This document shows, piece by piece, positions 607 through 24,001 of a DNA stretch of 64,000 nt; position 1 is the stretch's first letter; each line of letters begins with the position of its first letter. The translations under genes and the position numbers were made by a program. The stretch is from a virus: the IMG/VR virus record IMGVR_UViG_3300023179_009086, positions 1 through 64,000 of that record. One strand, written 5' to 3'. The notes beneath the pieces were generated by a model, which saw only the letters and a list, made by a program, of their open reading frames with translations, was not told the origin of the DNA and did not search any database.

Positions 607-1512
607 TTATCCTTCGCAGGCCAGGCATTCTGATCCATCTGCTAGTTGTTTTAGATCAATCTCTTCAATTATATTTCTTTCTATTTTTTGAGAAACTTTG
701 TCTGCTTTAATAATTTTTTCCGATCTGCAGTAATAAAGAGTTTTTAAACCTTTCTTCCATGCAGTAAAGTGTACCGCATGAAGATATTTAATTCCGGTAT
801 CGGGCTTGAAAAATACATTGACTGACTGCCCCTGATCAATGAACTGCTGTCTATCTGCCGCATGATCAATTACCCATCTTTGGTCAATTTCGATTGCTGT
901 CTTAAATACAGATTTTGTCCAATCATCAAAAATATCTAAACTTTGAATAGAGCCGCCACTTGAAATAATACTTGACCAAATATCTTGATAATCAAGTTTT
1001 GAGCTCTTAGAACACATATCTTTTATTATTTGATCTAGATACCTATTTTTATTCATATACGAACCTGACAGCGTATCCTGTCTGTAACAATTTGCTTTAA
1101 ACGGTTCTATAGAAGGCGAGGTATTTCCTAGAATAATTGAGGATGAGTTATGTGTCACCACCCCATTTTCAAGAACATAATCATGTGTCGTTGGAACTTC
1201 AATATCAAAAGTTGGCATAATTTCGCCTGTCGCCATCACAGATTCGACATACCAGCCATTTGTAAGCTCCATTCCTGAAATGAGCTCAACCACCTTAACC
1301 CAATCATGCTCTTTGGTTAGAAACTTATGATTTGCCGTACATCTTATAGAGAAGACGGACTCTCCCTTAATCATTATTAAATCAAGAACTTCCACATATC
1401 CGTTGAAATAAAATTTATTTACATCAGCAATCCCTTCCGATGTTTTTATAGAAATATTATTATCAGACTCAAACCATTGCGGCTGCTTCATCTTCACATT
1501 TTTAACTTTCAT
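607..1512 (-). CDS. nrdA: Ribonucleotide reductase class I alpha, C-terminal part, fused to C-terminal half of a split intein
   Basis: Residues 1-122 look like the C-terminal part of an intein, ending in NGVVTHN followed by Ser123, the +1 nucleophile. Residues 123-301 are the C-terminal end of class I ribonucleotide reductase. This part has the conserved SSSIILGNTSPSIEP segment, the Tyr-Tyr radical-transfer pair at 260-261 (KTLYYC) and a C-terminal Cys pair (CLACEG, C296/C299) of the kind that re-reduces the active site. The ORF is in the same phase as the upstream nrdA part. Between them lie 27 bases with two in-frame TAA codons and an AGGA nine bases before the ATG, so it should be translated separately. 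The natural reading is trans-splicing to the upstream half, giving an alpha subunit of about 597 residues without an ATP cone. A pseudogene split by nonsense mutation is the alternative, but the ribosome binding site and intact splice residues argue against it. Confidence 0.9.
   Translation of the reverse strand: MKVKNVKMKQPQWFESDNNISIKTSEGIADVNKFYFNGYVEVLDLIMIKGESVFSIRCTANHKFLTKEHDWVKVVELISGMELTNGWYVESVMATGEIMPTFDIEVPTTHDYVLENGVVTHNSSSIILGNTSPSIEPFKANCYRQDTLSGSYMNKNRYLDQIIKDMCSKSSKLDYQDIWSSIISSGGSIQSLDIFDDWTKSVFKTAIEIDQRWVIDHAADRQQFIDQGQSVNVFFKPDTGIKYLHAVHFTAWKKGLKTLYYCRSEKIIKADKVSQKIERNIIEEIDLKQLADGSECLACEG
1147..1512 (-). mobile_element. C-terminal half of split intein 3 in nrdA
   Basis: The first 122 residues of the downstream nrdA ORF carry intein blocks B (CTANHKFLT, T59/H62), F (TFDIEVPTTHDYVLENG) and G (VVTHN, H121-N122), followed by Ser123. 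Block B is unusual in a C-fragment: in classically split inteins such as DnaE it lies in the N-fragment. The fragment also starts with a stretch resembling the post-block-A strands of an intein (NNISIKTSEGIADVN). This is the layout of atypically split inteins such as AceL-TerL, whose N-part is only about 25 residues. No endonuclease domain is visible. Confidence 0.85.
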
Positions 1513-1536
1513 TGTTTATTTCCTAGTATTTTGCGT

Positions 1537-1776
1537 TTAATTTATTAATATAATTTCGTCATTTTCCATTAACTCTGATGCAATAATGGATATTTCTGAG
1601 CCATCCCTACTTACCTTTAGGCTTTGACCAATATGAATTTCTTTGGATGTGCCATCATCGAAGTCAACAGTAAGATACTCGAATGATTTCATGTCGACAC
1701 CAAGCTTGGCGCCTATATCGTCAAATGATATTGATTCTCCATCACTAGAAATAATCTTTGTATCAGAAGTTACGCA
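1537..1776 (-). mobile_element. N-terminal half of split intein 3 in nrdA
   Basis: From C987 (IAPNA/CVTSDTKI) to the stop codon the ORF encodes 79 intein-like residues. The first 26 or so match the short N-part of AceL-type split inteins in layout (Cys, then DTKI, then an acidic S-F-D-D-I helix). The remaining 53 include VDFDDGTS and an ASELMENDEIIL end. They look like a second, degenerate copy of the block-B region, because the T-x-x-H motif is replaced by IHIGQS. The C-fragment supplies its own TANH block B, so the two halves overlap in content. Confidence 0.8.
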
Positions 1777-4734
1777 AGCATTTGGCGCAATCGCAAGGAT
1801 GTGACTAAATCTTTTTCCTGTTCCAACGGCATCGGGAGCTTCACCCCTTTCCTTTCCAAGCTCAAGGTCGGCAATATCTAATAAACCCCTAATTTGTTTA
1901 AACATTCTAATATTGGTTGATTTTGCCAAAGCACTTTCAAAAGGAATTCCTTTTTGCTGCAAATAAGCATGAAACCCAAGCGCCCCAATTCCTATAGACC
2001 TCTCTCTCATGGCGGAGAATTTAGCCCTTGATATTGACTCTGGAGCATTTTCAATAAAGTAAGTTAAAACATTGTCAAGCATTTCTGCAACATCTTTTAA
2101 GAAAAGAGGATCATCTTTCCACTGATCATATGTCTCTAGATTTAACGATGAAAGACAGCAAACCGCTGTTCTCTCATCTGATGTGGGAAGAATTATCTCC
2201 GAACAATTGTGTGTGATGACGCCATTACATACCCAGAGATGCTGGTCTGTATGAACTCCCACACAATAAACATCCTGTTTTCCCGCTGGTTCTATTTTTG
2301 TAATTTTTGAAGATTTTTCTGAATTATTTTCAAATTTATCGTTTGCAACATAAGGTGAGCCGACTATATGATTAATCTTGTAAATACTTGAATATTCGGA
2401 GATACAAACTGAGTTTGTATCGTCATCAATGTTTGATGTTACTCCAAGATTCGAAAGAATAAGTTGAAGGCTTGCAGCATCTTCTTTGAATGAGCAAATA
2501 CTTATTTTTGATACAAAGATATGCTTGTCAAAATCTATGGATGTAGATGATGACAAAATGATCTTGCTTATGTAAGAAATATGTGTTTGTTTATCTGAAT
2601 TCCAAAGCCAATTTGGAATCATCATGTTTTCTATTGAATGATTTTCTGAAAAGTACTCTCTTACTTTTTCTATATTATTCTGCGTTCCAAATACGCCCTC
2701 ATGTGACTGAATAAATATATCATCTCCGATGTTCAATTCTGAAAGTGCAATCGCTTCAACTTTTCCGTTCTTCTTTGCCAGAATCTTATGATACCCAGTG
2801 ACAGTATGAGTCATGCCATTGTCGAGAGTAACTTTGAATGTCTCTGCATTTCTCTCAATTAGATTCATCTTCGTGGACTTTACAGGGCCATCATTTGATG
2901 CAAGAATAAGATCCTCTCCAAGATCATAAAGCTCTTTTGCAGTCAACATTCCAAAATTAGTTGGGACTCTCTGATCTCCTGAGACGCAGAGATTACTCTG
3001 TCGAACTTGTAGGCCTTTACTTTTTAGAAAATCTGGGAGAAAGCGATTTGATGTATCGATAAAGTGAATGTATGGCTCTCCTGTCTGCATTCTCAGCTCT
3101 AAAATCTTTTGCCACAATTCTTTCGCAGACACAACCTCCTTCACCTGACCGGTGTGTGGCTCTTTTAGTTCCCATGAGTCATCAACATTAGGATCTATCA
3201 TAGATCTCTCAATAATCTTCATAAAACTATCAGATATATTTATTCCATGGTGGAGATTTAGACATCTCATGTTTTGATCGCCTGTTGGCTTTCTCATTTC
3301 AAGAAATATAGGAACGTCAGGATGAGAAATATCCAGATAAGCGGCGTAAGATCCTCTCCGTGTATTTCCGCAAACAATTGGCGTTTCTCCCGCTCTAACT
3401 ACAATCTTTCCGGTCCGGACCACACAACAATGGACCATTCCTTCATACTGAATATGTTCTTTTCTTAACTTTTCAAGAAGGAAGTAATTCTTACTCCCAA
3501 CAAAAACTGTATACATATCTTGCCTTGGCTTGTCTCTTTTTCTATGAAAGATTCTGCTCTGTCGGCCAGCAATTACAGAAAGCGCCTGAACAATCGATGC
3601 GTTTTCTTTTATAGTGCTAAAGTAAATAAAACTATGCTGCCTGTTTCTTGTTGCATCCCATTCCGCAATTTCTTCAAGCATGGCGGAGGCATCCTCTTGG
3701 GTAATTCTTGACAAATCAATCCAAGAGAGACTCTTTAGCCCATCAAAATTCATACCTTTAGCATAAACGCTAACAGTGCCGTCTAAATTGTTAGCCTGCC
3801 ATGTTTCCAAATCTAGATTTGATAGAATTTCTGTTATTCTTGAAATCTTTCTTTCTTTTTTTAGATGGAATTCACATACGCCGTCCGCCCTAATATGAGC
3901 ATCTGCCTGTATTGCAATTTTCAGGCGAGTAAGTGCATCTAGTTTGGATTGTGATCTAGACTTCTTTGCTGCGTTCCAGAACCTAACTTCATTATGAAAC
4001 TTCAATTCTGATGCACGAACCTTCTCTAGTTTTTTTGACCAGCCAGATTTAACTTTTCTCTCAACAACCATAGAGTGATCTTCCGTTACTGAAATTTCTA
4101 TTCCTCTAGTTTTGTTATAGAATTTGATTATATTCCCATTATATTTTTCAGATACTATTTCTAGTGGTTTTTCAAAACAGATTCCTCCATCATCATCGAT
4201 CACTGCAACATCGTCATTTTTAGTCAGTAGCTCCATAGGCTTCCAGCCTGAAGATGTCAGTATTTCTGTTCCGGGAACATAGCAATTCCCTTGTTTGAAA
4301 GCCAGGGATGAAGCATCATAAATCTTTAGGTGTGGCATAACACCAGTAGATTTGTCACCAGCCGACCTAATCCCAAAACCCAAACCAACGCCGCCGCCAA
4401 GCATTGATAACCAGTTTGTCTCAGAAAGAGTGTCTACCAGACCCTTGGCTGTATCAGGAATCCATGATAGAAAACAACTAATTGGTAAACCATACTTAGT
4501 TCTACCAAAGGACAGAATTGGGGTGGAATAGCTCAACCAATGCTTGCTAGCATAATCATAGAGTCTCTGGGCATGATCTTGATTTGAGGAGAATTGCTTT
4601 GAAACAAAAGCAAACCTCTGCTGTGGTGAGGTTTCTTCATCTCTCATGTATGATTCTTTTAACCTTTTTAGGCCTAACTCATCAAATAAAGAGTCTCTAC
4701 TATAATCTACATTAATTCCAAGATAACTAGACAT
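1537..4734 (-). CDS. nrdA: Ribonucleotide reductase class I alpha, N-terminal part, with two internal inteins and N-terminal half of a split intein
   Basis: This is the large subunit of ribonucleotide reductase, making dNTPs for phage replication. Extein segments are residues 1-150, 458-582 and 844-986. Active-site equivalents are visible. C87 (LPISCFLS) matches E. coli C225, N581 with C844 and E846 (SNL/CSE across intein 2) matches N437/C439/E441, and C859/C860 (AVCCLSSLN) match C462. There is no N-terminal ATP-cone, as in many short phage and NrdE-like enzymes. Intein 1 covers residues 151-457, intein 2 covers 583-843, and the N-part of a third runs from C987 to the stop at 1065. The ATG at 4734 has GGAG seven bases upstream. 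GC content here is visibly higher than in the glycan region. No beta subunit lies in the window. The ORF cannot give an active enzyme without three splicing events, one of them in trans. Confidence 0.95.
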   Translation of the reverse strand: MSSYLGINVDYSRDSLFDELGLKRLKESYMRDEETSPQQRFAFVSKQFSSNQDHAQRLYDYASKHWLSYSTPILSFGRTKYGLPISCFLSWIPDTAKGLVDTLSETNWLSMLGGGVGLGFGIRSAGDKSTGVMPHLKIYDASSLAFKQGNCYVPGTEILTSSGWKPMELLTKNDDVAVIDDDGGICFEKPLEIVSEKYNGNIIKFYNKTRGIEISVTEDHSMVVERKVKSGWSKKLEKVRASELKFHNEVRFWNAAKKSRSQSKLDALTRLKIAIQADAHIRADGVCEFHLKKERKISRITEILSNLDLETWQANNLDGTVSVYAKGMNFDGLKSLSWIDLSRITQEDASAMLEEIAEWDATRNRQHSFIYFSTIKENASIVQALSVIAGRQSRIFHRKRDKPRQDMYTVFVGSKNYFLLEKLRKEHIQYEGMVHCCVVRTGKIVVRAGETPIVCGNTRRGSYAAYLDISHPDVPIFLEMRKPTGDQNMRCLNLHHGINISDSFMKIIERSMIDPNVDDSWELKEPHTGQVKEVVSAKELWQKILELRMQTGEPYIHFIDTSNRFLPDFLKSKGLQVRQSNLCVSGDQRVPTNFGMLTAKELYDLGEDLILASNDGPVKSTKMNLIERNAETFKVTLDNGMTHTVTGYHKILAKKNGKVEAIALSELNIGDDIFIQSHEGVFGTQNNIEKVREYFSENHSIENMMIPNWLWNSDKQTHISYISKIILSSSTSIDFDKHIFVSKISICSFKEDAASLQLILSNLGVTSNIDDDTNSVCISEYSSIYKINHIVGSPYVANDKFENNSEKSSKITKIEPAGKQDVYCVGVHTDQHLWVCNGVITHNCSEIILPTSDERTAVCCLSSLNLETYDQWKDDPLFLKDVAEMLDNVLTYFIENAPESISRAKFSAMRERSIGIGALGFHAYLQQKGIPFESALAKSTNIRMFKQIRGLLDIADLELGKERGEAPDAVGTGKRFSHILAIAPNACVTSDTKIISSDGESISFDDIGAKLGVDMKSFEYLTVDFDDGTSKEIHIGQSLKVSRDGSEISIIASELMENDEIILIN
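2206..2988 (-). mobile_element. Intein 2 of nrdA (261 aa), inserted directly before the thiyl-radical cysteine
   Basis: The intein runs from C583 (CVSGDQRVPT) to N843 (NGVITHN), with Cys844 as +1 nucleophile. That cysteine is also the catalytic thiyl-radical residue (E. coli C439 equivalent, SNL/CSEI). The block-B area around residues 640-650 reads TVTGYHKIL (T645/H649). The central part, about residues 690-800, resembles a degenerate LAGLIDADG endonuclease: an SFKEDAASLQLILSNLGV segment is seen, but clear catalytic acidic motifs are not. The +1 Cys and the terminal His-Asn indicate splicing competence. Confidence 0.9.
3364..4284 (-). mobile_element. Intein 1 of nrdA (307 aa, with likely LAGLIDADG-type endonuclease region)
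   Basis: The intein runs from C151 (block A, CYVPGTEILT) to N457, with Thr458 as +1 residue (VCGN/TRRGS). Block B is SVTEDH (T217, H220). The C-terminal block reads VVRTGKIVVRAGETPIVCGN, with Gly instead of the usual penultimate His, a known variant. Residues of about 262-430 have the look of a DOD homing endonuclease, with A-x-x-A-D-A-H-x-x-A-D-G-like and F-x-L-K-K-x-R-K-I-x-R-I segments, but the LAGLIDADG helices are not textbook, so endonuclease activity is uncertain. The junction regenerates the extein reading FKQGN-TRRGSYAAY. Confidence 0.9.
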
Positions 4735-4751: not shown

Positions 4752-5291
4752 TTATGATTCTAATTCTGGATTATACTGTTCCGATATTTGTCCATCTTTC
4801 CAAATTCTAACTAAATTTGTTTCTTCAGAAAGTGTAAATACTGATATAACATCTTTTCTCATTGAAAATGAGGCTGCGCTTATATGTCTAGTTCCACATC
4901 CATCTGGAACATCCAAAATTGGATTATCTACTGTTAGATAAATCTTACTACCTAATATTTGTCCATCTCTATTGATAACTATAGATCCATCATTGTTCTC
5001 TTTTATAAGAGAATGAAATTCTTTTTCAAAGGAACTAATGGAAATATTTAAATATTTTTGAATTGGATTTAATCCAATTTGCCTCATTCCTGGCACAATA
5101 TGATCTCGGTAAAAATCAAAATTACCAAAAACTATTAGGCAGCCAATATTGGCTGCTGTTTTATGAGAGGAATTTGAAATCTCAATTAAAGAATTATAGA
5201 TCTTCTTTTCTACTTTTTGAAACTCTCTTGCAGAGTTAAATTGAAAAGAAAAATCTACAGATGATACCTTCTGTAAATCTTCTGTAGTCAT
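4752..5291 (-). CDS. Diadenylate cyclase (DisA_N/DAC) domain protein, candidate c-di-AMP synthase
   Basis: DAC-domain enzymes condense two ATP to cyclic di-AMP. The signature motifs are recognisable. D101-G102-S103 sits where the family has DGA, followed by INRDGQILGSKIYL. G133-T-R-H136 sits where the family has GTRHR, and S155-E-E-T158 (LSEET) matches the conserved SEETG. The spacing from DG to RH is 34 residues, close to the family's roughly 31. Two deviations matter: DGA is DGS, and RHR is RHI, so activity is not assured. The 179-residue protein is essentially only the cyclase domain. It has no transmembrane helices (unlike CdaA) and no DisA linker or HhH DNA-binding domains. AGGA lies six bases before the ATG. 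It follows the prkA-yeaH-spoVR genes by 8 bp and precedes nrdA by 17 bp, so it is probably co-transcribed with both. Confidence 0.85.
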   Translation of the reverse strand: MTTEDLQKVSSVDFSFQFNSAREFQKVEKKIYNSLIEISNSSHKTAANIGCLIVFGNFDFYRDHIVPGMRQIGLNPIQKYLNISISSFEKEFHSLIKENNDGSIVINRDGQILGSKIYLTVDNPILDVPDGCGTRHISAASFSMRKDVISVFTLSEETNLVRIWKDGQISEQYNPELES

Positions 5292-5299
5292 TTGTTATC

Positions 5300-6682
5300 C
5301 TATCCGCTAAATCCATCCTCATCATAAGTAAGATGAACTTCTTCATTTTTAGCATTTATAGTCTGAATATTAATTGGATTTTTCCATATTTCATAAATAT
5401 ATTCACATACTTTTTCTATATGTTTGATATCCAAAGTTCCAATATGGGTACTTTCATGTTTTAATTGTAAAAATCCATCTTCCACACCGACGATGCTAAC
5501 CAGGGGTGCTCGATAGTCATAGAGATTTTTAACCAGGGACTCTGCAACATCATCTACATCAGTAGATACGACCTCTACTATTTCATCAAAATTATTTTTA
5601 TAATGTTTATAAGTAAACAACTCAAGTTCTTGTACTAATTCTTTAGTTAGATATCCTTTTACAAAAGAAATATCATCCTCTTCCTCTACTACTTCAAAAA
5701 CTTTTTGAAGTCCATTTATATTAGATTCTCCTTTTTGATATTTTTCATCCCATCTTTTTTTAATATCATTAAAAATAGAAAAACCCAAAAAATATGGATT
5801 AATATTTAATTTATTAGATCCAGGTTGAACTACTCTTTCATGTACTTTACAAAATTCTAAATGTTCTGATTGAGAAGTTAAATCAGTTTCATACATTAAA
5901 TCTGCATGGCAAAAACTTGCAAATCCTTCATTCATAATTTTTGTCATATATTGTGGATAAAAATAATAAGATTCTTCTCTAATTATTTCTAAAACATCTT
6001 TTTTCCATGATTCTAAATCTTTAGAATAATTTACCAAAAACCAAATAAGATCATATTCAGGATGTGGTGGAAAAGTGTCATTTAAAACATGCATTTTTTT
6101 AGAAGTAGCTGGAAGTCCGTGCATATCCGCAAATTCTCCATTGGAGATTTCTTTTATAAGAGTTCTTTTTTTTGGATATGGTTTTCTATGAATTCCTTTG
6201 TGCCAATCAATATGTTTATCTATTGCAAATCCTATATCCATTACTCTTTCTACTTCTTTTAAGCCATAATGAGCAATATACTCCTCTATTCTCTGAGCTC
6301 TTTCTGCAGCATGATAAACCATTTTATTATCTGTTTGTTTAAACAAAAAATTATTTTTAAAAAAATGAACATGTCCAAAAACATGGGCAGCTACCATTAG
6401 ATTAACAATATCTGAATTTGTATCTAATAAAAAAGCATAAGAAGGATCATTATTTAAAACTACTTCATAAATTTTTGAGTGTCCCATTTCTCCTTGCATT
6501 TTTTGATAATCATAAGATTGCCCATAAGACCAATGTCTAGCTCTAGTAGGTAATCCATAACTAACTACTTCTAACATTACTTCATTAGGAACTATTTCAA
6601 AATTAACTGGATAAAAGTTTAGTCCAAAATTTTTAGCCAATTTTTCCATTTCAACAATTTTTTCTGTTAATGTTTTAGACAT
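5300..6682 (-). CDS. spoVR: SpoVR/YcgB family protein
   Basis: SpoVR-family proteins (B. subtilis SpoVR, E. coli YcgB) act with PrkA and YeaH-type proteins in sporulation, stationary phase or stress. Their biochemical activity is not settled. The family signature is clear near the N-terminus: YGLPTRARHWSYGQSYDYQK, then an AAHVFGHVHFFKNN segment with closely spaced histidines, and AERAQRIEEYIAHYGL. The 460-residue length fits the family. I chose the ATG at 6682 rather than an in-frame ATG at 6706 because AGGA lies six bases upstream of 6682. This start overlaps the end of the DUF444 gene by 8 bases, which suggests translational coupling. The order PrkA, DUF444, SpoVR is that of the bacterial module. 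Confidence 0.93.
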   Translation of the reverse strand: MSKTLTEKIVEMEKLAKNFGLNFYPVNFEIVPNEVMLEVVSYGLPTRARHWSYGQSYDYQKMQGEMGHSKIYEVVLNNDPSYAFLLDTNSDIVNLMVAAHVFGHVHFFKNNFLFKQTDNKMVYHAAERAQRIEEYIAHYGLKEVERVMDIGFAIDKHIDWHKGIHRKPYPKKRTLIKEISNGEFADMHGLPATSKKMHVLNDTFPPHPEYDLIWFLVNYSKDLESWKKDVLEIIREESYYFYPQYMTKIMNEGFASFCHADLMYETDLTSQSEHLEFCKVHERVVQPGSNKLNINPYFLGFSIFNDIKKRWDEKYQKGESNINGLQKVFEVVEEEDDISFVKGYLTKELVQELELFTYKHYKNNFDEIVEVVSTDVDDVAESLVKNLYDYRAPLVSIVGVEDGFLQLKHESTHIGTLDIKHIEKVCEYIYEIWKNPINIQTINAKNEEVHLTYDEDGFSG

Positions 6683-7871
6683 TTTTATCCTTTTTTGCAA
6701 TACCATCTATATTAAAAAACATTTTTAATGCATCAAAGACTTCATCTTTAGAATTTACTTTCATAGTTACAAATCTTGTTCTTTTAATTTTTTTCTTTAA
6801 AATATCATGAAGAGTATCATAACCAGATTTATTCCATTGAATTTCTCTATCATTAGGGGCTATCTCTCCGTACCCTATGGCAGTACATAGTGGCAATAAT
6901 TTTTCAATATATTTAATACAAAGATTATTGTCTTCTCCCCAATTATCACCATCAGAGAATTCAAAAACATAATTATTCCAATATTCAACAGGGTGATGAT
7001 TTTGTATATGTTCGTACGCTAATTTAAAAGCAGTACTACAATTTGTACCACCAGAGCTTGAGATTTTAAAAAATTCTTTTTCCTCTACAATAAAAGCTTT
7101 AGAATCGTGAGCTATAAAAACAAAATCTATTTTTTTATATCTTCTTTTTAAAAATTGAACCATCCAAAAATAAAAACTTTTGGCAATATAAGTTTTTTCG
7201 TTATTCATGGATCCACTTCGATCCATCATAATATATACTGCAGCATTAGAATGATATTCTCTAACAATATCATAATTTTTATATCTTAAATCATCTTGAT
7301 TAAAGTTTGCAATTTTGGCTTCACCTTTTGCAGCATTTCTTTTTAGATTTTGAAGAATAGTTTTTTTCAAATCTAAGTTAGGCATAATGCCTTTTTTATC
7401 AATTGATGCAAATTCTTCATTTTCAATTTCAATAACAGAAGTTTGTTTTGGCTCCATCCATGGAAGGTTGAGTTCTTCCAACATAATGTCTACCAATTCA
7501 TCTATTGTAACGTCTGCATCAAAAGTTCTTTCACCTTCTTTATTTCCAGCTCCATCTCCGCTGGATTCTTCTGGCTGGCCACTTTTTATTTTAAATTTAT
7601 CACCCTTACCAGCTTTAACACCCTGACCGGTAGCATCTTGAGAATTCAATTTGCCATATTTGATTTTATATTGATCAAGAAATCTGATGGGAACTTTAAT
7701 TTTTTTATCCCCATCGGATGTAATGATATTATATTCGGTAATAAGATCTTTGCCATTTTTACGAATGGCATCTTTTACCAACTCTTTATGTCTATCTGAG
7801 TCTCTCTTACCTCTTCTTTTTAGCTTCCAGATATCAGAGAGATTCTCAGAGGATTTGGAAGTAGAGCTCAT
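6675..7871 (-). CDS. yeaH: YeaH/YhbH family protein (DUF444), von Willebrand A-like
   Basis: Residues 21-70 match the YhbH/YeaH N-terminal pattern (GKRDSDRHKELVKDAI, then KIKVPIRFLDQYKIKYG). Residues of about 210-385 form a von Willebrand A-like domain with a MIDAS motif D217-x-S-G-S221 (MDRSGSM) and a downstream threonine (SGGTNCSTAF). That domain probably binds a divalent metal and mediates protein contacts. A Gly/Ser/Lys-rich linker lies at about 85-118. The start codon overlaps the prkA stop by one base (TAATG), and the end overlaps the spoVR start. In bacteria the protein is encoded with PrkA and SpoVR and works with them under nutrient and stress conditions; the exact role is unknown. 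Confidence 0.93.
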   Translation of the reverse strand: MSSTSKSSENLSDIWKLKRRGKRDSDRHKELVKDAIRKNGKDLITEYNIITSDGDKKIKVPIRFLDQYKIKYGKLNSQDATGQGVKAGKGDKFKIKSGQPEESSGDGAGNKEGERTFDADVTIDELVDIMLEELNLPWMEPKQTSVIEIENEEFASIDKKGIMPNLDLKKTILQNLKRNAAKGEAKIANFNQDDLRYKNYDIVREYHSNAAVYIMMDRSGSMNNEKTYIAKSFYFWMVQFLKRRYKKIDFVFIAHDSKAFIVEEKEFFKISSSGGTNCSTAFKLAYEHIQNHHPVEYWNNYVFEFSDGDNWGEDNNLCIKYIEKLLPLCTAIGYGEIAPNDREIQWNKSGYDTLHDILKKKIKRTRFVTMKVNSKDEVFDALKMFFNIDGIAKKDKNV

Positions 7872-9781
7872 TAGTTTCTAGCCATTAATGAACTAACATA
7901 TCTTAGTAATTTGTTAGCAGACTCTGCTGTATATCCATGTTTTTCACATAGAGTATTAATAACTACATTAATTCTTTTAAGCTCTTCCTCATCTGGATTT
8001 CTAGTGCTTACAGTCAATCTGATGACATCTTGTCTTTCATCAAAGAGTTGCTTCTCTAAAGCTTCCTTTAGTTTTGGATGATCTTTGTAATTATAAGAAC
8101 CATTACTACTTTTGGCGCTTCTAAGCATTTTTCTATAGATTTCTTGTCTAAATGACTTTTTACCGCTCTCAGTAATTCCAACTTTTTCTTCAATGGATCT
8201 CATAAGTCTTTCATTTGGATCTTTTAAATTACCCCACTCATCTTCAATTTTAGTTCCATCTAGGAAAGCTCCAACATGATCCATATAATTATTGAGAAGA
8301 TTCTGAAGCTCTTCTTCAAAATTAACAAAGAAAGCTTTTTGAACTTCGCTCTTAGCAAGTTTTGAGTATTCTTCAATAACAGATGTCATAATATTTTCAA
8401 GTCTTTCAATTTCTTTAGAATCAAGTTTTGGATTAGTTTTAAATCCATCTCTAATAGATCTAATTACATCAATAGGAGTAATGCAAGTTGCACCTTCTTG
8501 TGCTAAAGTAGAAGAAATTCTATTAACAATATATCTAGGTGAAATTCCAGACATGCCTTCTGTATCAAATTCTTTCTTTAGAAGAGCAACATCTCCATGG
8601 GAAAAACCTTCGACTTCGTCACCATTATAGAGCCTCATTTTATTAATTGGTGTTGCCGCAGAGTTTTTGGACTCTTTAAGTCTTGATAGAATTGAGAACA
8701 TTGCTGCACAATAAAGTGTATATGGAGCAATATGTACTGATTTAAGATCTGAATTTTTAACTAATTTTTCATAAATCTTAACTTCATCGCTTACATTGAG
8801 ATTATAAGGAACTTTTACAACAATAATTCTATCATGTAAAGCTTCCATTTCTTCTTTTGCTAGAAATCTTTTATATTCGGTCTCATTGCTATGAGCAAGC
8901 AAAAATTCATCAGCATAGATGAGTGGAAATCTTCCAGTTTTAATATTCTTTTCTTGAGCAAGAGTTAATAAAACATAAAGAAATTTTTGATCTACCTTTA
9001 GCATTTCTACGAACTCCATCATGCCTCTGTTGGCTATATTGAGTTCTCCATCAAATCTAAAAGCTCTAGGGTCTGACTCCGATCCATACTCTCCAATCTT
9101 ACTCAAATCCATAGATCCTACTAGCTCGGAAATATCTTGACTCTTTTTATCTGAAGGAACAAAAGTTCCTATTCCAACTCTAGATTGCTCAGAGAAAATA
9201 ACTCTTTTAACTGGTAGATCTAAAAAGTTTCCATTGTACTGTTCTTTTAACACTAAATCCATAAGTGGACTTAACTGTCCTTCTATTTTAATTCCATAAT
9301 TTTCTAGCAAAGATTTTCTCAGATCATTTGGAATAGCCCAAAGTGGATCCTCATGCATAGGAGACTCGGAAAGAGCATAAATGGCACCCTCTGGAGTTTT
9401 TGAAAACTCCTCCATGCCTCTTTTTAACATAATAGCCAATTGTGACTTACCAGAAGAAGTTGGTCCGTATAGTAAAAGTATTCTTCTTGAAACCTCAGAG
9501 CCAGCCGCAGCAGCCCTTAAATAAGACATAATTTGCTCAATGGAATCTTCTGCTCCAAAGATTTCATTAGCAAAAAAATTATATTTAGTAATTTGTCCAG
9601 ATTCGCCTCTCTCCACTCCGGCATGCTCAATCATCTTTAAAACTCTAGAATGAGAGCTTATATTTAAGGCTGGATTCTCTATTACCATTTCCAAATAGTC
9701 TTTTAAGGTACCAGACCAAGAAAGTTCATTAGTTTTCTTGATATGCTTTGTCATTTCTTGGATAAGTTTGGCTGACTTCAT
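7871..9781 (-). CDS. prkA: PrkA family AAA+ protein (described as serine protein kinase / ATP-dependent protease)
   Basis: This is a full-length PrkA (636 aa; bacterial members are about 640). The N-terminal AAA+ PrkA domain has a Walker A motif G106-PTSSGKS113. It is followed by the family-typical YALSESPMHEDPL, a region with SRVGIGTFVPSDKKSQDISELVGS, and MMEFVEMLKVDQKFLYVLLTLAQE. The C-terminal part holds the PrkA C-terminal domain. PrkA was named a serine kinase, while more recent work on the Bacillus protein favours an AAA+ protease-like activity. A strong GGGAG precedes the ATG at 9781. It leads the three-gene unit with DUF444 and SpoVR, and a small zinc-ribbon gene ends 3 bp upstream. 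Confidence 0.95.
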   Translation of the reverse strand: MKSAKLIQEMTKHIKKTNELSWSGTLKDYLEMVIENPALNISSHSRVLKMIEHAGVERGESGQITKYNFFANEIFGAEDSIEQIMSYLRAAAAGSEVSRRILLLYGPTSSGKSQLAIMLKRGMEEFSKTPEGAIYALSESPMHEDPLWAIPNDLRKSLLENYGIKIEGQLSPLMDLVLKEQYNGNFLDLPVKRVIFSEQSRVGIGTFVPSDKKSQDISELVGSMDLSKIGEYGSESDPRAFRFDGELNIANRGMMEFVEMLKVDQKFLYVLLTLAQEKNIKTGRFPLIYADEFLLAHSNETEYKRFLAKEEMEALHDRIIVVKVPYNLNVSDEVKIYEKLVKNSDLKSVHIAPYTLYCAAMFSILSRLKESKNSAATPINKMRLYNGDEVEGFSHGDVALLKKEFDTEGMSGISPRYIVNRISSTLAQEGATCITPIDVIRSIRDGFKTNPKLDSKEIERLENIMTSVIEEYSKLAKSEVQKAFFVNFEEELQNLLNNYMDHVGAFLDGTKIEDEWGNLKDPNERLMRSIEEKVGITESGKKSFRQEIYRKMLRSAKSSNGSYNYKDHPKLKEALEKQLFDERQDVIRLTVSTRNPDEEELKRINVVINTLCEKHGYTAESANKLLRYVSSLMARN

Positions 9782-20531: not shown

Positions 20532-22115
20532 TTAAATTATTTTTTTATACAATCTTTGTCCAGCATCATATATTTTTGTCCATTTTAATTCTTCTGCATA
20601 TTCTTTTTCAGATAAACATCTGGAATCCATATTTGCTCTACAAGCAAGTCGATTATATGTTGCTTTATTATCGGTCCATTTCCAACTCAAAATATCATGA
20701 TCCTTTTTAAATCCATGTTGGAGAAGAAAGCTTCCAACTCCATATCTAAGATCTACCCAATAATGAATTTCATTATATTTGCCAAATAATTTTTTTTCAA
20801 GATATGATAAGAGTTTGGAAAAGCCTCCAACAACTACTGTATTTAGTGCTGATGAGAGTCTTTCTATTATCAATTTCTTTCCTACAACTCTATATGAGAG
20901 ACAAGTCAAAATTTCATTATTATATTTTAAACATATATTTTTATATTTTCCACTTCCAGGTCCCATTAGATGGGTTCTTTCATAAAATGCTGATGCATCA
21001 GCAGAATTAATAATTTCTATTTTTGTTTTTCTTGCAAAAATTTTATTAGAAGTTTTTCCCAAAGAATTATCAACTATTGATTTAATTATATCAATCTTTG
21101 TCTCTATTTCATCAGATCTAAATTGAAAAATTCTAAAATTAAATAATTCATATTTTTCTCTCATAGAAAAATGATAATTCTTATTTTTAACTACATTATC
21201 TGAATGCCAATATAAACCATCGGCATTCAGATAATGTGATTCAGAAAGTTTAAAATCAGGTCTATAATTAATAATATCTTTATCTATTTCATTTATTTTT
21301 TTATTCCATTTTTGAATTCCAAAGGTATTTTCTATAATTTTTTCTATATTAGTTTTTGAAAAAATAAAATTAGAAATAAAATTATTAATATCTTCATCTG
21401 TATAATTTTCTTTATTTCTAATCCAATGACTAAACCAATATAGTGAAATATTAAATGTTTTAGAGAATTCAATTTTAGAATAAAATTTACCTTTATAATT
21501 TACTCCATATTTTTCCGCATATTTTTTTTTAGATTTATTTGCAATTTCTTTATTCATAGCAGGAGCAATTGCACCATATTTTTGGATATTTGTTTCTTCT
21601 ACTTTTTTTCTAATTTCAGGAAGAGACATTACCCATTCAACGCCATATTTCTTTAAATAAGTTTCTTTTTGCTTTGAAATTGCTAGATCTGATGCAGAAG
21701 CATGTTCAACACCATATCTTTCTAAAGATGTTTGTTTAAACTTTTCTTTTATTTCTTCACTTTGTAGTGGACTGTTTACCCCATATGAATCAAAAAGAGA
21801 TTTTTCTTGTTTTTGTTTAAACTCATCAATCTGCATTGCATTTTCTGAGCCATACTTTTCTTTCATAGTTGATTTTAATTTTAAAATTCTAGTTTCATCT
21901 ACTTTTTTAGCATTTTCTTTAGATCTTTTTAAATTAAATTTTTTTACATATTTGGCAATAACATTGATAGATGAATCAACTTCTTCAGCAATTTCTTTTA
22001 GAGTTTTATTTTCAATTATATACTTCTCTTCAAGCCAATGCTTATCTCTATAAGGTGGACTATAGTTTTTACCAAATCTAAAAGTTTCTAGTCTTCTATC
22101 TTTTTTCTCTTCCAT
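20532..22115 (-). CDS. Stand-alone homing-endonuclease-like protein (Vsr/EDxHD-type) with HTH and KYG repeats
   Basis: A 527-residue protein. Residues of about 35-65 look like a helix-turn-helix (LKEIAEEVDSSINVIAKYVKKF). Residues of about 85-205 carry at least five copies of a repeat with KYG/SYG/RYG-V and charged helices, like the DNA-recognition repeats of phage homing endonucleases. Residues of about 285-345 hold a Vsr-like nuclease core with YRPDFKLSE, LNADGLYWHSD, a KYELF helix and FRIFQFRSDE. The C-terminal 160 residues (AFYERTHLMGPGSGKY...) look like an acyltransferase-like or other accessory fold. Such genes spread between phages. It stands alone between glmS and gmd, with AAGGGGG before the ATG, its own terminator and a promoter-like element. 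It has no role in glycan synthesis that I can see. Confidence 0.75.
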   Translation of the reverse strand: MEEKKDRRLETFRFGKNYSPPYRDKHWLEEKYIIENKTLKEIAEEVDSSINVIAKYVKKFNLKRSKENAKKVDETRILKLKSTMKEKYGSENAMQIDEFKQKQEKSLFDSYGVNSPLQSEEIKEKFKQTSLERYGVEHASASDLAISKQKETYLKKYGVEWVMSLPEIRKKVEETNIQKYGAIAPAMNKEIANKSKKKYAEKYGVNYKGKFYSKIEFSKTFNISLYWFSHWIRNKENYTDEDINNFISNFIFSKTNIEKIIENTFGIQKWNKKINEIDKDIINYRPDFKLSESHYLNADGLYWHSDNVVKNKNYHFSMREKYELFNFRIFQFRSDEIETKIDIIKSIVDNSLGKTSNKIFARKTKIEIINSADASAFYERTHLMGPGSGKYKNICLKYNNEILTCLSYRVVGKKLIIERLSSALNTVVVGGFSKLLSYLEKKLFGKYNEIHYWVDLRYGVGSFLLQHGFKKDHDILSWKWTDNKATYNRLACRANMDSRCLSEKEYAEELKWTKIYDAGQRLYKKII

Positions 22116-22165: not shown

Positions 22166-24001
22166 TTATTCTATGGTGAGGCTCTTAGCCAGATTAATCG
22201 GTCTATCTACGGAGCAACCTCGCAAATCGGCAAGGTGTAGTGAGATAAGCTGTCCTACAATTAAGAAAGTAATTGTATTAAGAATTTTATTTTCATTAGA
22301 TGGGATAATTATACTATAATTAACTGAATTAATAAAATCTTGTGGACAACCTTCTTCAAAAATACCGATAACCTGACCATTGCGACTAGTTATTTCTTTA
22401 ATATTTGCCATCATTTTGGTTCCGAGAATATTATTCTCAACCAAAGCAATAGTAGGTCTAATATTATTAATTAATGCTAATGGACCGTGCTTTAGCTCAG
22501 ACCCAGAATATCCTTCGGCATGAATATAACTTATCTCTTTTATTTTTAAAGCATATTCTCTAGCTATAGGTTCAAGTTTATCTCTACCAATAATTAACAT
22601 TGAATCAATATTTTTATAATTATTAAAAATATCTCTAATATCATTAGATTTTAATAAAATTTTTGAAATCTTATCTGGAAGCAAATATAATTCATTTATA
22701 ATTGAAATATAATTTTCAGGAGACATGGTTCCCTTTGAACCAAGTAGGGCTGCAAGAAGAATCATATTAATTATTTGATTGGTAACAGATTTGGTAGCAG
22801 CAACAGATGCTTCTTTACCAGATCTAATATAAATTCCACAATCTACCATTCTTGAAATAGTAGATGAAACTACATTTACTATACCAATAATAGTTGAGTT
22901 TTTCTTTTTAAAGTTATTTATACATCCTATTGTATCTGCTGTTTCACCAGATTGAGATACACAAATTAATGATGTTTTATCATCTGCAATAATATCATAA
23001 TATTGCAGTTCTCCAGCAGAAATTGCTTTGGATTTAATTTTAGCCATAGATTCCATAGCATATGCGCCAATTTGAGATGCATAAAAAGCAGAACCACATC
23101 CAGTAAAAATAAACTCTTGAGTTTTTAAAATTTTAAAAAGATGTGATTCAATACCGCCTAGTTTTATTAACTCTAATAATGGATTTACTCTACCGGCTAG
23201 CGTAGTTCTAATATATTCTGGTTGTTCAAAAATTTCTTTTTCTAAAAAATATTTATATTTATCTTTAGTATAAATTGAATTTACTGAAGATAATTCTTCA
23301 AAAGAAAATGTAGAATCTTTTCCAGAAAAATGTTTAATAATAATATTTTTTTTATGTTCTAAAATAGCATATTTATTATTTTCTAAAACTACTGTTTTTT
23401 TAACAAAATATGGCAAAGAAGGTATATCTGAAGATATATAAAATACATCAGAATCAATTCCAATACAAAGTGGAGAACCTAATCTTGCTAAAAATAATTT
23501 TCCTGGATTATCTAAATGAGCCATGACAAATGCATAGGCACCTTTTAATTCAGAAAAAACAATGTTTAAAGCTTCTTCAATATTGGAAGTTTTTTCATGC
23601 CAATATTGTATTAAATTTGGAATAACTTCTGTATCAGTTTCTGAATAAAAGGAATATCCATTAGAAATTAAAAAACTTTTAATTTCAGTATAATTTTCTA
23701 TAATTCCATTATGAACAACTGAAATTTTTTTATTATTTGATAAATGAGGATGAGCATTTGCTTCTGTAATGCCTCCATGAGAGGCCCATCTATCATGCCC
23801 AAATCCTATAAAGGAATCACCAGTATCAATATGATCCGGTAGTTTTTCTGGATGACCAACAGATTTGATGATGTCAAATCTATTAGAATAGACTACACTA
23901 ATACCACAACTATCATATCCTCTGTAAGAAATATTTGATAACATTTCTTTTAATTCAGAGTAGTAATTATTTTTACCTATTATACCTACTATACCACACA
24001 T
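22166..24001 (-). CDS. glmS: Glutamine--fructose-6-phosphate aminotransferase (isomerising)
   Basis: GlmS makes glucosamine-6-phosphate from fructose-6-phosphate and glutamine, the entry to UDP-GlcNAc and amino-sugar glycans. It is full length (611 aa; E. coli 609). The glutaminase domain starts MCGIVGIIG with nucleophile C2 and has HDRWASHG, HNGIIENYTEI and SETDTEV. Two SIS isomerase domains follow, with TGCGSAFYASQIG, SQSGETADT and GSELKHGPLALI. The protein ends LAKSLTIE, matching the conserved C-terminal tail. All key residues are kept. No ribosome site is obvious before the ATG. The upstream 177 bp are extremely AT-rich. Confidence 0.97.
   Translation of the reverse strand: MCGIVGIIGKNNYYSELKEMLSNISYRGYDSCGISVVYSNRFDIIKSVGHPEKLPDHIDTGDSFIGFGHDRWASHGGITEANAHPHLSNNKKISVVHNGIIENYTEIKSFLISNGYSFYSETDTEVIPNLIQYWHEKTSNIEEALNIVFSELKGAYAFVMAHLDNPGKLFLARLGSPLCIGIDSDVFYISSDIPSLPYFVKKTVVLENNKYAILEHKKNIIIKHFSGKDSTFSFEELSSVNSIYTKDKYKYFLEKEIFEQPEYIRTTLAGRVNPLLELIKLGGIESHLFKILKTQEFIFTGCGSAFYASQIGAYAMESMAKIKSKAISAGELQYYDIIADDKTSLICVSQSGETADTIGCINNFKKKNSTIIGIVNVVSSTISRMVDCGIYIRSGKEASVAATKSVTNQIINMILLAALLGSKGTMSPENYISIINELYLLPDKISKILLKSNDIRDIFNNYKNIDSMLIIGRDKLEPIAREYALKIKEISYIHAEGYSGSELKHGPLALINNIRPTIALVENNILGTKMMANIKEITSRNGQVIGIFEEGCPQDFINSVNYSIIIPSNENKILNTITFLIVGQLISLHLADLRGCSVDRPINLAKSLTIE

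What the first reader, a model, noticed from the sequence alone, without database searches (positions are those of the whole stretch)
607..4734. nrdA carries three inteins, the third split between two ORFs with its own ribosome binding site
Direct reading: the upstream ORF ends inside an intein (C987 onward) and the downstream ORF begins with an intein C-part ending VVTHN/S. The two ORFs are in the same phase (starts 3222 bases apart) and are separated by two in-frame TAA codons. An AGGA lies nine bases before the second ATG. The extein halves complete each other as class I NrdA with all active-site cysteines and the Tyr-Tyr pair. This points to a trans-splicing ribonucleotide reductase that seems to have arisen by nonsense mutation inside a formerly contiguous gene.
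Basis: partly seen in the sequence, partly recalled or inferred. Interest (0 to 1): 0.9.

Follow-up and report, generated by a model that had tools for sequence, protein, structure and literature searches.

The report
Phage nrdA with overlapping split intein
A phage ribonucleotide reductase is encoded in two pieces that should be joined after translation by a split intein; such two-piece enzymes are known, but here the two intein halves overlap and carry the same catalytic segment twice, once intact and once worn, a layout I found described nowhere and saw in only one other phage.

Summary
In detail: ORF A (1537-4734, -) and ORF B (607-1512, -) together encode a complete 597-residue class I NrdA with three inteins, the third divided between the ORFs. 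Trans-splicing is the best reading. The proposed origin, a nonsense mutation in a formerly contiguous gene, is not supported. A relative (L002, an IMG/VR contig) has the same two fragments with matching ends but a 1.4-kb homing-endonuclease-like gene between them, and other phages have nrdA split at the same residue with such genes inside (L092, L114, L122, L123, CP21). So the window carries an old 'fractured' gene without the endonuclease, most simply lost. The new point is the split itself. The N-fragment (79 aa) is block A plus a second, degenerate block-B segment ending at the canonical split point; the C-fragment (122 aa) begins like a canonical C-intein but then holds the middle region and an intact block B, F and G, like atypically split VidaL. 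Halves therefore overlap. The extra N-segment is under purifying selection and is not a copy of the intein's own block B, which points to a chimera of two inteins. Splicing itself is untested. New variant of a known kind.

The parts
1537..4734 (-). ORF A: NrdA N-extein, intein 1, intein 2 and the N-part of intein 3 (1065 aa)
   Evidence: Ribonuc_red_lgN and Ribonuc_red_lgC matches
607..1512 (-). ORF B: C-part of intein 3 plus NrdA C-extein (301 aa)
   Evidence: Ribonuc_red_lgC 2e-29, intein_Cterm TIGR01443 over cut-off
3364..4284 (-). intein 1 (307 aa, contiguous, with an insert that reads like a LAGLIDADG endonuclease)
   Evidence: an intein of 307 aa at the same site in L002; endonuclease type judged by eye only
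2206..2988 (-). intein 2 (261 aa, contiguous); its +1 residue is the NLC active-site cysteine
   Evidence: Intein_splicing and intein_Nterm matches; absent in L002
1678..1776 (-). intein 3 N-part, block A (residues 1-33, Cys1)
   Evidence: HMM of same-site inteins, model 1-33
1540..1677 (-). intein 3 N-part tail: second, degenerate block-B segment (B'), TxxH replaced by HIGQ
   Evidence: HMM model 68-112, 17.3 bits against at most 10.0 in about 9,300 scored shuffles; purifying selection
1513..1536 (-). gap between the halves: AGGA-type ribosome binding site (1521-1524) and second in-frame TAA (1516-1518); in L002 a 1.4-kb endonuclease-like ORF lies here
1480..1512 (-). C-part head MKVKNVKMKQP, resembling the start of canonical C-inteins at this nrdA site
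   Evidence: best of 20,652 8-mers against a PSSM of canonical starts; L122 and L123 start MKVKK/MKVKQ
1147..1479 (-). C-part core: middle region, intact block B (TANH), blocks F and G, ending VVTHN before S+1
   Evidence: HMM model 31-150; VidaL best PDB match, E 3e-4

Best explanation
Intein 3 is a naturally split, class-1-type intein that joins the two halves of a phage class I NrdA in trans. The catalytic Hint domain is rebuilt from block A of the N-fragment (residues 1-33) and the C-fragment (middle region, block B with TxxH, blocks F and G). Cys1 makes the N-S shift, Ser+1 of the C-extein takes the chain, and Asn122 with His121 releases the intein. The remaining N-fragment tail (B', about 45 aa) and the first ~10 residues of the C-fragment are homologous to the two sides of the canonical split site. 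They most likely came with a homing-endonuclease gene that moved, with its flanks, into an early position of another intein allele. The resulting arrangement is still seen in L002; the window's lineage has most simply lost the endonuclease. B' lacks the catalytic His, and I infer that B' plus the C-head serves as an assembly element holding the fragments together. Shown by sequence: the two ORFs, conserved splice residues, exact extein complementation, the duplicated block-B segment, its conservation, and the endonuclease-like ORF in L002. Inferred: splicing activity, the order of evolutionary events, and the role of B'.
For: Architecture. Empty-site relatives confirm the junction. L002 has the same fragments (C-part 74% identical over 122 aa, N-part 56%) with an endonuclease-like ORF between. 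Same-site splits with an endonuclease-like ORF between canonical halves: L092, L114, L122 and L123, CP21. The L002 endonuclease matches the VSR-type endonuclease inside the split PolB intein of Aeromonas phage Aes123: tblastn 7e-4, hhalign 97% and 99.4%. Duplicated block-B segment. C-part resembles VidaL. C-head. B' is not a copy of the intein's own block B: pairwise 19 against 59 for L092 N, tree. pN/pS of B' is 0.31, against 0.41 for block A and 0.26 for the C-part. AlphaFold2 of the read-through intein: pLDDT 89.2, pTM 0.75, B' and the C-head as strands; 49 PDB matches at E <= 0.001, headed by inteins.
Against: No splicing data. Only two sequences carry the overlapping layout. The fold search superposes poorly on solved inteins (rmsd often above 12 angstrom), so the model does not show which block-B segment packs against block A, and it was made with the stop codons read as glutamine. 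Synonymous sites are saturated between window and L002, so pN/pS is approximate. The record holds no recognised NrdB, though it is incomplete. Loss of the endonuclease in the window, rather than gain in L002, rests on parsimony.
Confidence: 0.75

Rival explanations
1. Nonsense mutation inside a formerly contiguous intein, with a new start site downstream, made the split recently.
For: The two ORFs are in the same phase with two in-frame TAA codons and only 24 bases between them.
Against: L002 has the same split with an endonuclease-like ORF between the halves. The N-part lacks the middle region and ends at the canonical split point, and the C-part begins like a canonical C-intein, which a point mutation cannot give.
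Confidence: 0.06
2. The tail of the N-fragment is a dead relic of a replaced intein, tolerated but without function; the working intein is simply an early-split (VidaL-type) intein.
For: B' has lost TxxH, and the C-part alone supplies everything after block A, as in VidaL or the L091 RecA-like intein with a 15-residue N-part.
Against: B' stays protein-constrained between window and L002 (pN/pS 0.31, lower than block A) and its predicted strands are confident.
Confidence: 0.3
3. The split NrdA no longer splices; the halves are a decaying pseudogene or act as an unspliced two-subunit enzyme, as in Aeromonas phage Aeh1 (known from the literature).
For: Phage RNR genes interrupted by inteins have been suggested to be degenerating (PMC3653736, on Campylobacter phages); no NrdB found in the record.
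Against: Splice residues Cys1, TxxH, His121, Asn122 and Ser+1 are intact in both phages, and the exteins show low pN/pS (0.10-0.16).
Confidence: 0.08

Closest known systems
[quoted passage not shown] 2009, NAR 37:2560; not held here, cited in PMC7090010 and PMC3653736; details of the endonuclease from memory)
   Same: Phage-type RNR gene split inside an intein; the closest relative L002 has an endonuclease-like gene between the halves.
   Different: The window has no endonuclease, and its intein halves overlap instead of meeting at the canonical site.
Split PolB intein of Aeromonas phage Aes123 (L079; PMC11923092)
   Same: Tandem ORFs ending and starting inside an intein; its VSR-type endonuclease is homologous to that of L002.
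   Different: Canonical split, serine nucleophile, DNA polymerase host gene.
Atypically split inteins (VidaL 6vgv, AceL-TerL, PolB16 OarG in PMC10189870)
   Same: The long C-fragment carries blocks B, F and G; VidaL is the best PDB sequence match of the C-part.
   Different: Those have N-fragments of about 15-25 residues; here the N-fragment is 79 residues with an extra block-B segment.
Same-site split or contiguous NrdA inteins: L092, L114, L122, L123, Campylobacter CP21 (split); CP220, F355, L088 (contiguous)
   Same: Same insertion residue in NrdA, homologous Hint domain.
   Different: Canonical split or contiguous; block B present once.

Membership tests
naturally split intein | N-fragment with Cys/Ser1 and block A on one ORF, C-fragment with block G (HN) and +1 nucleophile on another | tested here: met
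naturally split intein | extein halves complete one another exactly | tested here: met
   597-residue NrdA; empty-site relatives show the same junction
naturally split intein | splices in trans | not testable with these tools
   needs co-expression
canonically split intein (about 100 + 35-40 aa) | N-fragment through block B, C-fragment of 35-40 aa | tested here: not met
   79 + 122 aa; N-part lacks model 34-67, C-part spans model 31-150
atypically split intein | long C-fragment carrying block B | tested here: met
atypically split intein | short N-fragment (about 15-25 aa) | tested here: not met
   79 aa with extra segment B'
fractured gene (split intein with homing endonuclease between halves) | endonuclease ORF between the halves | tested here: not met
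   24-base gap in the window and no match to the L002 endonuclease in the record; met in L002
class I NrdA | catalytic cysteines, C-terminal CxxC, LYY pair | tested here: met

The most novel reading that the evidence does not exclude
A third natural split-intein layout: overlapping halves, in which the N-fragment keeps a catalytically dead second copy of a Hint segment that pairs with the head of the C-fragment and works as an assembly clamp while the active Hint domain is built at an early split site. It would have arisen when a homing-endonuclease gene moved with its flanks from a canonically split intein into another intein allele.
Probability: 0.45. Interest if true: 0.7.

Novelty: new variant of a known kind. 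Interest (0 to 1): 0.5.

Why it matters
Split phage RNR genes are known, so the trans-splicing enzyme alone is not a surprise. The overlapping halves would show how split sites move inside inteins, linking canonical and early-split forms through endonuclease mobility, and would offer a natural split intein with a built-in docking module, which is useful for protein ligation. The window and L002 give a pair with and without the endonuclease-like gene.

Tried and rejected
Searches with the N-fragment alone found only L002 in IMG/VR and, in phage records, one weak match to a DNA polymerase at E 0.09. A scan with the five-member L092/L114/L088/CP21/L086 alignment failed for lack of conserved stretches; the narrower one gave L122 and L123. 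The AlphaFold2 model of the L002 endonuclease was poor (pLDDT 60), so no fold search was made with it; its class rests on sequence. Pfam named no domain in it with confidence. MAFFT alignments of the fragments with contiguous inteins pulled the L002 N-tail onto the C-part's block B, so the structure was predicted without N-tail homologues. Local duplication of the intein's own block B as source of B' was rejected. Assembly error and simple read-through were rejected because of L002. Dassa 2009 is not held.

Full report
What is there. On the minus strand of this 76.6-kb phage record (G000), nrdA is encoded by two ORFs. ORF A (1537-4734, 1065 aa) carries the first part of NrdA, two contiguous inteins and the first 79 residues of a third. 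ORF B (607-1512, 301 aa) carries 122 residues that finish the third intein and then the rest of NrdA. Taking the inteins out leaves a 597-residue class I NrdA with SNLC, PISC, AVCC, the LYY pair and a C-terminal CxxC. Pfam and NCBIfam place both halves in the RNR large subunit. Phage relatives without an intein here read APNASSSIIMGNTSPSIEP straight through the site, so the spliced product IAPNASSSIILGNTSPSIEP would be scarless.

Why it is a trans-splicing arrangement. Cys1, the block-B TxxH (in the C-part), the block-F region, His-Asn at the end and Ser+1 are all present, and the exteins are under strong constraint between window and L002 (pN/pS 0.10-0.16). L002, an IMG/VR contig from a metagenome, has the same two fragments, but about 1.4 kb apart. 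The halves there cannot be joined by reading through stop codons, so joining at the protein level is the natural reading. Activity has not been measured.

Origin of the split. In L002 the gap holds an ORF that overlaps the end of the N-part ORF and the start of the C-part ORF. Its C-terminal region resembles the VSR-type endonuclease that lies between the halves of the split PolB intein of Aeromonas phage Aes123 (tblastn 7e-4; hhalign 97% for the L002/L092 pair). The same kind of ORF lies between intein halves at this same NrdA residue in L092, L114 and L122, and a shorter related ORF in Campylobacter phage CP21; L123 has an ORF there that reads like another (HNH-like) type. The fractured layout is therefore widespread at this site, and the window's 24-base gap is most simply a loss of the endonuclease. 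A nonsense mutation of a contiguous gene would not give these ends. The in-phase start codons are a coincidence with odds of one in three, and L002 happens to be in phase too.

The unusual part. An HMM built from seven same-site inteins (contiguous or canonical-split, N and C joined) matches the window's N-part at model positions 1-33 and then 68-112, skipping 34-67, and matches the C-part at 31-150 (an earlier model agrees). Positions 68-112, the block-B segment, are thus encoded twice. The N-tail alone scores 17.3 bits for the window and 16.9 for L002, against a maximum of 10.0 among about 9,300 scored shuffles. In the N-part the TxxH motif has become HIGQ; in the C-part it is TANH. The N-part ends where canonical N-inteins end (ELMENDEIILIN against ELTENDEIVSV in L092). 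The C-part begins MKVKNVKMKQ, the best of 20,652 8-mers in the window's proteins against a profile of canonical C-intein starts, before continuing with the middle region. Its best sequence match among solved structures is VidaL, an early-split intein.

How it may have come about. The extra N-segment is unlike the intein's own block B (local score 19) and closer to that of the canonically split L092 (59); in a small tree it does not group with the C-part's block B (under 50 columns, inner nodes weak). The simplest account is that an endonuclease gene, with the flanking parts of a canonically split intein, was placed at an early position of another intein allele. L091, a RecA-like gene with a 15-residue N-part, a similar endonuclease-like ORF and a 137-residue C-part, shows that such genes do sit at early split sites. 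This order of events is inference.

What the extra segment does. It is constrained at the protein level (pN/pS 0.31, block A 0.41, C-part 0.26; synonymous sites saturated), so I lean towards a role in holding the fragments together rather than a dead relic. AlphaFold2 of the read-through intein (both TAA codons read as Q) is confident (pLDDT 89.2, pTM 0.75) and gives strands in B' and in the C-head. Foldseek finds inteins at the top (49 matches at E <= 0.001), but mostly with poor superposition, so I do not use the model to say which block-B segment packs on block A.

Relation to what is known. Natural split inteins usually have N-parts of about 100 aa and C-parts of 35-40 aa; atypical ones have N-parts of 15-25 aa (PMC10189870; PMC11923092). 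Split phage RNR genes, including intein-interrupted nrdA in ocean metagenomes, are described (PMC3653736, citing Dassa 2009; NrdA-2 in PMC7090010). The case here belongs to natural split inteins, fits neither the canonical nor the atypical length class, and its fractured-gene ancestry is visible only through its relatives. I found no description of naturally overlapping halves in the searches made, which cover open-licence papers only.

Limits. Two sequences carry the layout; no reads, expression data or splicing assay were available. No NrdB was recognised in the record, which ends close to nrdA and is probably incomplete.

Noticed in passing
window 4752-9781 (-): On the 5' side of nrdA lie a DisA/DAC-type nucleotide-binding domain protein, SpoVR, DUF444 (YeaH-like) and PrkA kinase genes in a row, an unusual set for a phage; SpoVR and a DUF444-like C-terminus also precede nrdA in L002.
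   Followed up: partly
window 20532-22115 (-): Free-standing homing endonuclease gene (phrog_3339, E 6e-46).
   Followed up: no
window 22166-24001 (-): 611-aa protein matching phrog_13807 end to end, with glutamine amidotransferase / GFAT-like matches.
   Followed up: no
window 33637-61519 (-): Very large ORFs (1505, 3159, 1103, 2662 aa), one with a baseplate wedge match; function of the largest not examined.
   Followed up: no
L092 4424-8639: NrdA with two split inteins in one gene: a tandem split at the NLC cysteine without an endonuclease and a split with an endonuclease-like ORF at the third-intein site, so three ORFs would need two trans-splicing events.
   Followed up: partly
L091 1055-4089: RecA-like gene with a 15-residue N-intein, a VSR-like endonuclease ORF and a 137-residue C-intein, plus another C-intein-like ending further down the same ORF.
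   Followed up: partly
L077 2492-5546 (Campylobacter phage CP21): Third NrdA intein split with a truncated endonuclease-like ORF between the halves, while CP220 keeps it contiguous; the ORF between is annotated only as a hypothetical protein.
   Followed up: partly
L076, L080, L082 (Campylobacter phages CPt10, CP20, CC_R7): The NLC-site intein of nrdA is split with two small ORFs of unknown function between the halves; CPt10 is annotated as a disrupted pseudogene although both intein parts look intact.
   Followed up: partly
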